Part shown: piece by piece, positions 1-36,082 of the stretch
Numbering within the stretch: position 1 is the first letter of the stretch
Layout of the letters: each line of letters begins with the position of its first letter
Assembly: GCA_029561735.1 (NCBI GenBank)
Contig: JAKQWZ010000064.1
Span: 67,583 to 111,553, forward strand
Direction: 5' to 3'
Origin: Candidatus Omnitrophota bacterium
GTDB taxonomy: Bacteria > Omnitrophota > Gorgyraeia > Gygaellales > Profunditerraquicolaceae
DNA: 43,971 bases
Made by a program: the position numbers and the translations under genes
Notes under the pieces: generated by a model
What the model saw: only the letters and a program-made list of their open reading frames with translations
What the model was told of the DNA's origin: nothing
Database searches by the model: none

Positions 1-1292
1 CTGCGGTTCTCAACTGCCCGGAATACCGAACCTTGAAGATGCTGGAACGGGCTGGAAGTATCTTTAAACCAGGCATCATTGGTCATATTCACTAAAAAAC
101 CGGCTCCGGCATTGACAAATCCGCGCGAAATATCAGGAAACATATCTTCAAAACAAATCAAAACCGAAAATTTTGCGTCTTTGACCTTAAATACAGTATA
201 ATCTTTGCCTGCGGAAAAATCACCTATAGGCACAATGGTCTCTAAGAATGTAAACGTATTTCTTAAGGGAATAAATTCCCCGAAAGGCACAAGATGTAAC
301 TTATCGTACTGCCGGATAGAACTTTCTCTGGGAGCAATTAACAGTGCGCTATTATAGAAATTCCCGCCCCTTAAAGTCACCGCTCCGAATAACAAAGGTA
401 TCCTGTTTTCTTTAACCGAATGTTTTATTTTTTCCAGGACATCCGGAGATTGTTCCAGGACTGCCGGCATAGTCGCCTCAGGCATAATAATCAAATCCGG
501 ATTCTCCTTAGCTGCGTGCCCGGCAATATCCAGATATTTATCAATTATATAATCTTTGGCTGCGGGGTCCCATTTAAGTTCCTGTGGAATATTACCTTGG
601 ACTACAGAGGCTTTAAGAGGCGGTGTCCGAGGGGCAAGGGGCAATGGGCAATAAAGGCAAAAATAACCATAAACTAAAACCCCTGCTAAACATACAACCG
701 GCAACCAGCATTTTCTTACTATGTTTGCAAGTTGCAAGTTGCAACTTGCAACTTGATATACCGCTACGTTGGCCATCATCACTACAAATGACACTCCCCA
801 CGCCCCGGTAATATCAGCAATCTGAATAACCGGCAAATTTGTTGACTGAGAATATCCCAGTAACGCCCAGGGAAATCCGGTCATCAGATACGAGCGGATA
901 TATTCCAGAATAACCCAGATAGATGAAATATAGAGCGGCGCGAATGGCCGGGGGGGAATAGATAAGGACGATACTATAGTGCCGAATAAGCCGAAATATA
1001 AAGCCAGATAAAGCGACATTAGAAACATGCCAATCAATGTCACATGCATCAGCCAATAAATCGTCCCCAGCCAGAATATCAGGCCGGTAAAATATGCAAG
1101 AAGGAATGCCTGCGTCTTGGATTTATTTTGGAGTGCAAAAAATAAAGGTACAAATCCAAACCAGGCAAAAACCCAAAGGTTTATCCTTAAAAAAGGAAAA
1201 GATAATAAAACTCCGGAAAAGGCACAAAGCAACAAATCTTTAAAGACTGGCGACTGGCGACTGGCGACTGGCGACTTTATTTGCCGCAGCAT
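1..1292 (-). CDS. lnt: apolipoprotein N-acyltransferase (3' end outside window)
   Basis: Hand translation of the minus strand from ATG at 1292 gives [52 protein letters not shown]...[17 protein letters not shown]..., typical Lnt membrane domain plus nitrilase domain ([17 protein letters not shown]). Absent from the ORF track because it runs off the window. ATG overlaps the secA 3' end. Confidence 0.85.
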
Positions 1293-34323: not shown

Positions 34324-34364
34324 AAAACTGCTGTTCTTTCCGGAAGAAAGGGCAGCGGTTTTTT
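34324..34364 (+). terminator. Rho-independent terminator downstream of speD-like gene
   Basis: AAAACTGCTGTTCTTTC-CGG-AAGAAAGGGCAGCGGTTTTTT. Confidence 0.75.
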
Positions 34365-35037
34365 ATTTCCTGACTAATTTGTATTTTTTATCAATATAAG
34401 GCGAGATTGTGCGGTAAATACGCATAGCCACGATCTTATAGCCGTCGCGGTTAGGATGGAGAAAATCACTCTTTAAACGCGGATTGGTTATAATGCCGCT
34501 GAGGATATTAGGGATAAATATCGCCCCCTTCTGCCTGGCAAGCTCTTTATAGGCTTTACGGTAATTTTTCATAAGCATACCGGCGCTAATATCGGCTATT
34601 GCCACCATGGAGCCCCTGGCCTGGATCTTATCAACCATATCGCTGATATTCTTTAAAGTTTTTTCTTCCGGGACCTTTCGTAAAAAATCATTTCCGCCCA
34701 ATTCTATTATGACCAGTAACGGGTCGCGGCTTAAGACATCGGATTCCAGCCTTTGTAAAGCTTCGGTAGACGTATCCCCGTCTATCCCTTCGTTGATCAC
34801 CGGGATATTTACCATTTCAGCCAAGGCGGTGGGATAACTCTCCTGTTTGGTAACGCCGTAGCCAAAAGTAATACTGTCCCCGAAACAGACAATTGTCTTT
34901 CCTTTTGAGCCGGTATTGCGTACTTCTTTCTTCCCGCAGCCGCTTAAGAAGGTAAAACTAAAAATACAAAACGTAAAACTACAGCCTAAAACTAAAAACT
35001 TTATAAATTTTCTTGCTTTTGAATTTTTAATTGTCAT
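34363..35037 (-). CDS. SGNH/GDSL hydrolase (TesA-like esterase), lipoprotein
   Basis: VCFGDSITFGYGVTKQESYPTALAEMV; ELGGNDFLR; SDFLHPNRDGY; lipobox FLSGCG. Confidence 0.9.
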   Translation of the reverse strand: MTIKNSKARKFIKFLVLGCSFTFCIFSFTFLSGCGKKEVRNTGSKGKTIVCFGDSITFGYGVTKQESYPTALAEMVNIPVINEGIDGDTSTEALQRLESDVLSRDPLLVIIELGGNDFLRKVPEEKTLKNISDMVDKIQARGSMVAIADISAGMLMKNYRKAYKELARQKGAIFIPNILSGIITNPRLKSDFLHPNRDGYKIVAMRIYRTISPYIDKKYKLVRK

Positions 35038-35060
35038 TTTGACTTTTTACTTTTGACTTT
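34951..35060. repeat. 7-bp-period repeat island spanning the rlmN stop, GDSL start and signal peptide
   Basis: Minus strand AGTCAAA AGTAAAA AGTCAAA ATGACAA ... GTTTTTA GTTTTAG GCTGTA GTTTTAC GTTTTGT ATTTTTA GTTTTAC. Confidence 0.65.
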
Positions 35061-36082
35061 CTCTTAATCTGAGTTGCCCGCATGCCGCCTCAATATCCTG
35101 TCCGCGGCTTGAGCGTAAAGTCACATTTACATCAGACTTTATCAGCATGTCCCTGAACATCAGTATATCCACTTTTCCCGGGGGTTCAAGCCCTAATTCT
35201 TTTATAGGGTTGCACGGTATCAGGTTAACTTTAGCCTCCAGGCCGGCTATAAGCTTAACCAGATTCTTTGCGCTTTGCAGGTCTGAATTCAGCCCCTTGA
35301 TCATAGTATATTCAAAAGTGACCTGCCTATTGGTATCTTTGATGTATTCTCTTAATGCCCCTATCAGTTCTTTTAATGGATATTTTTTTATTTATCGGCA
35401 TGATTCTGGAACGGGTTAAATCGTCTGCCGCGTGCAAAGAAACGGATAATTCCACTTGCAGGCCTTCCTTGGCTAATTTTCTGATTTGAGGAACCAGGCC
35501 GCAGGTTGAGATGGTAATCCTGCGCTGGCCTATATTCAGGGACTCCTTGGAATTAATAATACGGATTACCTTTAATACGTTGTCATAATTATCCAGCGGC
35601 TCACCCGTACCCATAAAAACTATATGGGTTAATTTATTGCCCTCTGAATTGCATTTAATCAACAATACCTGCTCCATCATTTCACCGCAGGTGAGATTTC
35701 TTTTAAAACCCGAAGCGCCGCTGGCGCAAAACCCGCAGGCGTATTTACAGCCTGCCTGGCTGGAGACACATCCGGTAACCCGGTCATCTGCAGGAATTAT
35801 AACCGATTCTATTAAGTTTCCGTCGTCCAGGCCCATAAGCAGCTTTTGAGTCTGGTCGCGCGAAATGGATTTTTTGACCAGTTTAAAGCCAATAATGAAG
35901 AACTTATCTTTAAGCTTATTACGTAATTCAGCCGGCAGATTGGTCATCCGGTCAAAATCAAACACGCCTTTCTGGTATATCCAGGAGAATATCTGTTTAG
36001 CGCGGAATTTTTCAGCCGAAATCTGCGGCAATTCGCGCTCTAATTCAGACAGGCTGAAATCTTTGAGGTCTACCATAGCCAT
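35047..36082 (-). CDS. rlmN: 23S rRNA (adenine2503-C2)/tRNA methyltransferase RlmN, frameshifted
   Basis: ORF 35327..36082 (QAGCKYACGFCASGASGFKRNLT) continues in another frame as ORF 35047..35304 (MIKGLNSD...VNLIPCNPI) across a 7-nt A run at 35383-35389. Confidence 0.9.

What the first reader, a model, noticed from the sequence alone, without database searches (positions are those of the whole stretch)
34951..35060. Heptamer island supplies the rlmN C-terminus and stop, the GDSL start codon and the lipoprotein signal peptide
On the minus strand AGTCAAA AGTAAAA AGTCAAA ATGACAA carries the rlmN end (ESQK*) and GDSL ATG. Then GTTTTTA GTTTTAG GCTGTA GTTTTAC GTTTTGT ATTTTTA GTTTTAC encodes KFLVLGCSFTFCIFSFTFLSGCG, the hydrophobic core leading to the lipobox. 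A repeat element appears to have been exapted as an export signal.
Basis: partly seen in the sequence, partly recalled or inferred. Interest (0 to 1): 0.65.

Follow-up and report, generated by a model that had tools for sequence, protein, structure and literature searches.

The report
Repeat arrays rebuilt into signal peptides
In a family of uncultured Omnitrophota bacteria, short runs of repeated 7- or 8-letter DNA words turn up again and again inside genes and are read as protein, here as the end of one gene, the start of the next and its predicted export signal, although repeats of that length would normally wreck a gene.

Summary
AGTCAAA-AGTAAAA-AGTCAAA (35038-35058, minus strand) supplies the rlmN stop and leads into the GDSL ATG, and irregular GTTTTA-type heptads encode the signal peptide core. 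In the window alone the signal-peptide half is weak (codon-shuffle p 0.005 with indels allowed; 0.30 without), and the AGTCAAA array occurs once in the 1.23-Mb genome.

Relatives decide it. All but this one of 68 orthologs overlap rlmN and GDSL (median 14 nt). In 12 of 74 the signal-peptide DNA is a 7- or 8-bp tandem array (0 of 295 catalytic segments), with different units in different genera, scattered on the tree. Such arrays also lie in-frame in LeuRS, UvrA, MnmE, FolC, RnfC, PurD, LptE, ApbE. In one near-complete relative, AGTTCAT forms a dispersed family of about 44 mostly intergenic elements, many of them inverted pairs, half starting within 40 nt after a stop codon; one is that genome's GDSL signal peptide.

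Best reading: a degenerate member of a class of short heptad elements, lodged behind rlmN's stop and kept because its arms read as a Lys-rich n-region and hydrophobic h-region. Precedents: Rickettsia palindromic elements, ERIC/RU fusions, Neisseria opa. Export and mobility are untested.

The parts
35015..35060 (-). Left (A-rich) heptad arm: AAAGTCA AAAGTAA AAAGTCA AAATGAC AATTAAA AATTCAA AAGC. Holds the rlmN C-terminus and stop, the GDSL start codon and most of the Lys-rich n-region (MTIKNSKA).
   Evidence: 21-mer at 35038-35058 expected 0 times by chance
35047..35049 (-). rlmN stop codon TAA inside the array; among 68 orthologs this is the only junction where rlmN and GDSL do not overlap
35035..35037 (-). 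GDSL lipoprotein start codon ATG directly after the third heptad
34951..34998 (-). Right (T-rich) heptad arm TTTTTAGTTTTAGGCTGTAGTTTTACGTTTTGTATTTTTAGTTTTACC, read as the hydrophobic core FLVLGCSFTFCIFSFT
   Evidence: indel-tolerant heptad score p 0.005/0.02; ungapped p 0.30
34999..35014 (-). AT-rich spacer between the two arms (AAGAAAATTTATAAAG)
   Evidence: fold
34936..34938 (-). Lipobox cysteine (LSGC, residue 34), kept in most orthologs
34363..35037 (-). GDSL (TesA-like) lipoprotein gene, 224 aa, immediately downstream of rlmN
   Evidence: PF13472, 8e-26; matches in 123 of 195 genomes
35327..36082 (-). rlmN, 5' part (RlmN_N and radical SAM)
35047..35304 (-). rlmN, 3' part, in another frame because of one extra A in an A7 run at 35383-35389
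1245..1276 (-). Second heptad array of the same kind in the window: (AGTCGCC)n starting at the secA stop codon and read as the N-terminus of the overlapping lnt gene ([23 protein letters not shown])
   Evidence: unit found once in the genome
725..755 (-). Third array, inverted heptads CAAGTTG CAAGTTG / CAACTTG CAACTTG inside lnt, read as [12 protein letters not shown]

Best explanation
The island is a degenerate member of a class of short elements made of arrays of 7-bp (sometimes 8-bp) units, often two arrays in inverted order around an AT-rich spacer, which are dispersed in these Omnitrophota genomes with a unit particular to each genome. They lie mostly just behind stop codons. At the rlmN/GDSL junction the two genes overlap by about 14 nt, so an element behind (or here over) the rlmN stop falls on codons 5-30 of the GDSL gene, its signal peptide. 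In the window the element also broke the ancestral overlap and supplies a new rlmN stop and a new GDSL start. Copies survive when in frame and when the strand being read fits the protein: the A/purine-rich arm reads as a Lys/Ser/Gln-rich n-region (or soluble loop), the T-rich arm as the hydrophobic h-region. Shown: recurrence, different units, in-frame placement, dispersal in G057, position behind stops, hydropathy bias. Inferred: that the window's own element has this origin, how elements arise or spread (copying versus slippage), and that the peptide is exported and lipidated.
For: Signal-peptide arrays in 12/74 orthologs against 0/295 catalytic segments. Array carriers scattered on the GDSL tree: 14 changes for 14 carriers, at least 4 forced by well-supported branches. 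67/68 orthologs overlap rlmN by a median of 14 nt, the window being the sole exception; the strong arrays begin -2 to +20 nt from the rlmN stop, one exception (L024) at +57. Genome-specific dispersal: AGTTCAT 54 hits in G057, 0 in 11 of the 13 other genomes searched, reversed control 0; about 44 loci, 40 intergenic by a simple ORF caller, 22 starting within 40 nt after a same-strand gene end against 5 near a gene start, several with an inverted second arm. Complete inverted arms as n- plus h-region in LptE (hairpin z -5.7) and in L025. Same class inside UvrA, RnfC, FolC, MnmE, PurM, PurD, PheT, ApbE and LeuRS, identified by family models or motifs; six LeuRS copies carry arrays at one loop. 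N-terminal arrays encode hydrophobic and internal arrays hydrophilic peptide (median hydropathy 1.6 vs -1.1, p 1e-4). Own genome has two further cases: the lnt N-terminus behind the secA stop and a TPR protein whose signal peptide reads MKVISYKLQVTSWVKAGIFCLVIAIFAPCALRLAPCYA from AAGTTAT/AAGTTAC then GCCTTGC heptads.
Against: The window's own signal-peptide heptads are irregular and not significant in an ungapped test. Its hairpin is explained by an A-rich block next to a T-rich block. The AGTCAAA and GACTGGC units each occur once in the genome, so dispersal is not shown in this genome. Array-bearing and array-free LeuRS loops have about the same length, which fits local turnover as well as insertion. 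Behind the rlmN stop and in the signal peptide are the same place here, so the two causes cannot be separated at this gene. The genera sampled for array density were partly chosen because they carry arrays, and gene calls are simple ORF calls.
Confidence: 0.6

Rival explanations
1. Local slippage only: 7/8-bp microsatellites arise in place from short seeds in these lineages, with no dispersed element; selection keeps in-frame arrays in tolerant places such as signal peptides and loops.
For: Units differ between loci within one genome; loop length about unchanged with or without arrays; heptamer repeats are over-represented in many bacteria (PMC4692102).
Against: One unit recurs at about 44 loci in G057 and AAAAGCG-type units recur at several genes in G037, while most relatives have none of the G057 unit; G057 elements share ends (TTAGTTCAT...CATAGA) and several have inverted second arms.
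Confidence: 0.25
2. For this window, coincidence: an AT-rich genome gives Lys-rich and Phe/Leu-rich signal peptides from A-rich and T-rich DNA, and the heptads in the h-region are codon bias (TTT, TTA, GTT, AGT).
For: Ungapped test p 0.30; hairpin not better than block codon shuffles.
Against: AGTCAAA x3 at the stop/start is not expected by chance; only this ortholog lost the rlmN/GDSL overlap, exactly there; indel-tolerant test p 0.005 and 0.02; arrays at the same place in a dozen relatives.
Confidence: 0.2
3. A phase-variable (contingency) signal peptide like Neisseria opa: gain or loss of one 7-bp unit shifts the frame and switches the lipoprotein on or off.
For: Unit length not a multiple of three in coding DNA; 4-6 near-perfect copies in some relatives.
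Against: Few, degenerate copies in the window; arrays also sit in housekeeping genes (LeuRS, UvrA, PurD) where switching off would be harmful; no within-species copy-number data.
Confidence: 0.06
4. The array is an RNA element of the rlmN 3' end (hairpin, terminator or decay signal) and its coding role is a by-product.
For: Elements cluster behind stop codons, one in G057 just before a terminator-like hairpin; a related array lies behind the stop of a similar gene in the window's genome.
Against: rlmN and GDSL overlap in all other orthologs read, so a terminator there would silence GDSL; the hairpin in the window is weak.
Confidence: 0.06

Closest known systems
Rickettsia palindromic elements (RPE; Ogata et al. 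2000, reviewed in PMC10969869)
   Same: Small, often palindromic repeats found in frame inside many unrelated protein genes, in places the protein tolerates.
   Different: RPEs are about 150 bp with conserved families and a conserved peptide; here the elements are about 30-90 bp, built of 7/8-bp units that differ from genome to genome, and no conserved peptide was seen.
ERIC/RU elements fused to enterobacterial genes (Delihas 2007, PMC2759123)
   Same: [quoted passage not shown] pestis YPO1552 while related proteins have unrelated signal sequences.
   Different: A single case with one long element; here a dozen genera use different short arrays at the same gene.
Neisseria opa CTCTT coding repeats (PMC3960869)
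   Same: A tandem repeat of non-triplet length inside the leader-peptide codons.
   Different: opa is a many-copy switch; here copies are few and often degenerate, and the class also occupies housekeeping genes.
Heptamer direct repeats of Cyanobacteria and Beggiatoaceae (TAACTGA, PMC4679880) and of Xanthomonas/Nostoc (PMC4692102)
   Same: Dispersed 7-bp arrays, mainly intergenic and close to gene ends.
   Different: Reported mainly between genes; no role as signal peptide or enzyme loop was found in the passages read.

Membership tests
GDSL/SGNH hydrolase, TesA-like lipoprotein | GDSL-type domain above the Pfam cut-off | tested here: met
   PF13472, 92 bits against cut-off 32.9
GDSL/SGNH hydrolase, TesA-like lipoprotein | n-region, h-region and lipobox Cys | tested here: inconclusive
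   MTIKNSKARKFIKFLVLGCSFTFCIFSFTFLSGC has all three by eye and the Cys is kept in most orthologs; no SignalP or LipoP was available
Rickettsia palindromic element | about 150-bp palindrome with conserved sequence | tested here: not met
   elements are 30-90 bp with units differing between genomes
Rickettsia palindromic element | in-frame placement in many unrelated genes | tested here: met
   arrays inside UvrA, RnfC, FolC, MnmE, PurM, PurD, PheT, ApbE
Phase-variable coding repeat (opa type) | copy number that varies within a species and shifts the frame | not testable with these tools
   one genome per species is held
Dispersed heptamer repeats (Cyanobacteria/Beggiatoa type) | tandem 7-bp unit recurring at many loci of one genome (relative G057) | tested here: met
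Dispersed heptamer repeats (Cyanobacteria/Beggiatoa type) | same test in the window's own genome | tested here: not met
   AGTCAAA and GACTGGC arrays each occur at one place
MITE | terminal inverted repeats, target-site duplication, related transposase | tested here: inconclusive
   inverted arms and common ends in G057; duplications and transposase not tested

The most novel reading that the evidence does not exclude
Inverted heptad-array elements are a self-dispersing class whose unit is homogenised within each genome and turns over between genera. Because one arm is purine-rich and the other pyrimidine-rich, a single insertion behind a stop codon is a ready-made signal peptide (charged n-region, then hydrophobic core) for an overlapping downstream gene, and such insertions repeatedly replace lipoprotein signal peptides and enzyme loops in Omnitrophota.
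Probability: 0.35. Interest if true: 0.8.

Novelty: new variant of a known kind. Interest (0 to 1): 0.64.

Why it matters
It would show repeat DNA being turned into functional protein segments many times over, at the same gene, with a different sequence each time. That gives a natural, replicated experiment on how little a signal peptide needs, and on how genomes tolerate repeats whose length is not a multiple of three inside essential genes. It also warns annotators that N-termini of lipoproteins and some enzyme loops in these genomes need not be homologous across genera.

Tried and rejected
Hairpin as proof for the window's element: z -2.0 against dinucleotide shuffles, but no better than codon shuffles within the two blocks, so dropped as evidence. 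Hairpins as a general mark of array-bearing GDSL signal peptides: z-scores scatter around zero except L025; LptE is a separate gene. A common heptad core (AGTC) across phyla: suggested by eye, chance level about one in five for any heptamer by my estimate, not pursued. Named-genome search for orthologs gave only two loci, both Candidatus Omnitrophota. Literature searches found no report of these repeats in Omnitrophota in the library held.

Full report
What is there. On the minus strand the end of rlmN and the start of a GDSL lipoprotein gene are written in A-rich heptads: AAAGTCA AAAGTAA AAAGTCA AAATGAC AATTAAA AATTCAA AAGC (35060-35015). The rlmN stop is 35049-35047 and the GDSL ATG is 35037-35035. 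After a 16-nt AT-rich spacer follow T-rich heptads of uneven length (34998-34951), read as the hydrophobic core before the lipobox cysteine at 34938-34936. The 21-mer AGTCAAAAGTAAAAAGTCAAA is not expected by chance in the window. It occurs once in the 1.23-Mb, 82%-complete genome. The signal-peptide part is weaker: p 0.30 in an ungapped test, and 0.005 and 0.02 in an indel-tolerant test against two kinds of codon shuffle. The protein is a GDSL/TesA-like hydrolase. The named relatives found are Candidatus Omnitrophota.

Orthologs. GDSL matches were found in 123 of 195 related genomes, and 74 signal-peptide regions were read. In 12, the signal-peptide DNA is a tandem 7- or 8-bp array with score 10 or more; none of 295 equally long segments of the catalytic part reaches that score, and codon order was shuffled as a further control. 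Examples are TTTGCTA x4 reading FAICYLLFAI (L005), CGTTATTG-type x6 reading RYCVIALLGYWVIG (L019), and AAGCTCC x4 followed by CTTGCAG x4, inverted, reading SSKLQAPSSKQRK then LLAACSLQLATLL (L025). The carriers lie in different genera and carry different units. On a tree of the catalytic domain the label needs 14 changes for 14 rows (12 strong carriers and weaker ones, the window included), of which well-supported branches force at least 4. The tree is poorly resolved near its base, so 14 is an upper reading.

Geometry. In 67 of 68 orthologs with a readable junction, rlmN and GDSL overlap (median 14 nt). The window is the only one without overlap, because the AGTCAAA array has taken the place of the usual junction. 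In carriers, the strong arrays begin -2 to +20 nt from the end of the rlmN stop, with one exception at +57. The same arrangement, an array directly behind the stop of an overlapping upstream gene, is found for ApbE, a LysM lipoprotein, LptE, and in the window itself for lnt behind secA.

A dispersed family. In G057, a nearly complete relative, the unit AGTTCAT gives 54 hits (up to 1 mismatch in 18 nt), against 0 in 11 of the 13 other genomes searched and 0 for the reversed pattern. About 44 loci were read: 40 are intergenic by a simple ORF caller, 22 begin within 40 nt after a same-strand gene end, 5 lie that close to a gene start. They share ends (TTAGTTCAT ... CATAGA), and several carry an inverted second arm. 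One member is the G057 GDSL signal peptide, its array beginning in the rlmN stop codon. Other units are shared within other genomes (TTTGCTA in G015 and G037; GTTATTGG in G007, G018, G032 and G074) (for GTTATTGG the reversed control also matches, since that pattern reads much the same backwards). In the window's genome AGTCAAA and GACTGGC each occur at a single place.

Inside genes. In 622 kb of sampled relatives, period 7 is the commonest array period (22 arrays; none of period 7 or 8 in block-shuffled sequence), and most of these lie in reading frames. With one scoring, 7/8-bp arrays number 55 per Mb in the array-rich genera, 10 per Mb in genus g13, 25 per Mb in the window's genome and 0 in 200 kb of E. 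coli K-12. The array-rich genera were partly chosen for having arrays, so these densities illustrate and do not estimate. Array-bearing genes were confirmed as UvrA, RnfC, FolC, MnmE (two genomes, same site), PurM, PurD, PheT and ApbE. In LeuRS, several genomes carry arrays of different units in one loop of about 17 residues, much the same length as in array-free copies. Arrays at N-termini ahead of a lipobox-like cysteine encode hydrophobic peptide, internal arrays hydrophilic peptide (median hydropathy 1.6 against -1.1, p 1e-4). This is what selection on the strand and frame being read would give.

Own genome again. A TPR protein on contig 38 of the window's genome has a signal peptide built from AAGTTAT/AAGTTAC heptads (n-region) and GCCTTGC heptads (core and c-region). 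Its counterpart in another genus has a signal peptide from other heptads. So the window's genome has at least three N-termini of this make.

Mechanism. Shown: recurrence at one gene with different units, position behind stops, in-frame survival, dispersal of one unit in one genome, and hydropathy matching the protein context. Inferred: that the window's island is an old, decayed member; that elements spread by copying and not only by slippage; that the peptide is exported and lipidated. The hairpin of the window's island is not independent evidence.

Known kinds. [quoted passage not shown] Dispersed heptamers are known from Cyanobacteria, Beggiatoaceae and Xanthomonas, mainly between genes (PMC4679880, PMC4692102). 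What is new here is a 7/8-bp array class, often inverted, whose unit changes from genome to genome and which repeatedly rebuilds the same signal peptide. No report of it was found in the library held, which lacks most subscription journals.

Noticed in passing
window 35383-35389 (minus strand A7): rlmN is split by one extra A in an A7 run; relatives read NKKYPL or similar through the same place. Sequencing or assembly error, a real frameshift, or slippage cannot be told apart here.
   Followed up: partly
window 1245-1276, 725-755, 630-651: The lnt gene at the window's left end carries three heptad arrays, one forming its N-terminus directly behind the secA stop codon, one an inverted heptad pair inside the protein.
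   Followed up: partly
G000 contig 38 (locus L216): A TPR protein of the window's genome has a signal peptide made of AAGTTAT/AAGTTAC and GCCTTGC heptads; its relative in L125 (6372-8864) uses other heptads.
   Followed up: partly
L038 and L045, GDSL gene, codons about 15-45: A different, long palindrome (GTCATTCTGAGG...CCTCAGGATGAC) sits in frame in the same signal-peptide region in genus g13 (fold z -8.2 and -7.2).
   Followed up: no
L037, leuS gene loop: The LeuRS loop that holds heptad arrays elsewhere holds another repeat here (reading IPASAGMTE), suggesting the loop accepts various in-frame repeats.
   Followed up: no
L111-L113 (G028): Intergenic arrays of the palindrome GGAAACWGTTTCC spaced 23 bp apart, many copies within 80 kb.
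   Followed up: no
L197 (G057) and L214 (G000): Behind the stop codon of what looks like the same gene (both ends read ...KRFQWTKR*), both genomes carry heptad arrays of different units, just before a terminator-like hairpin.
   Followed up: no
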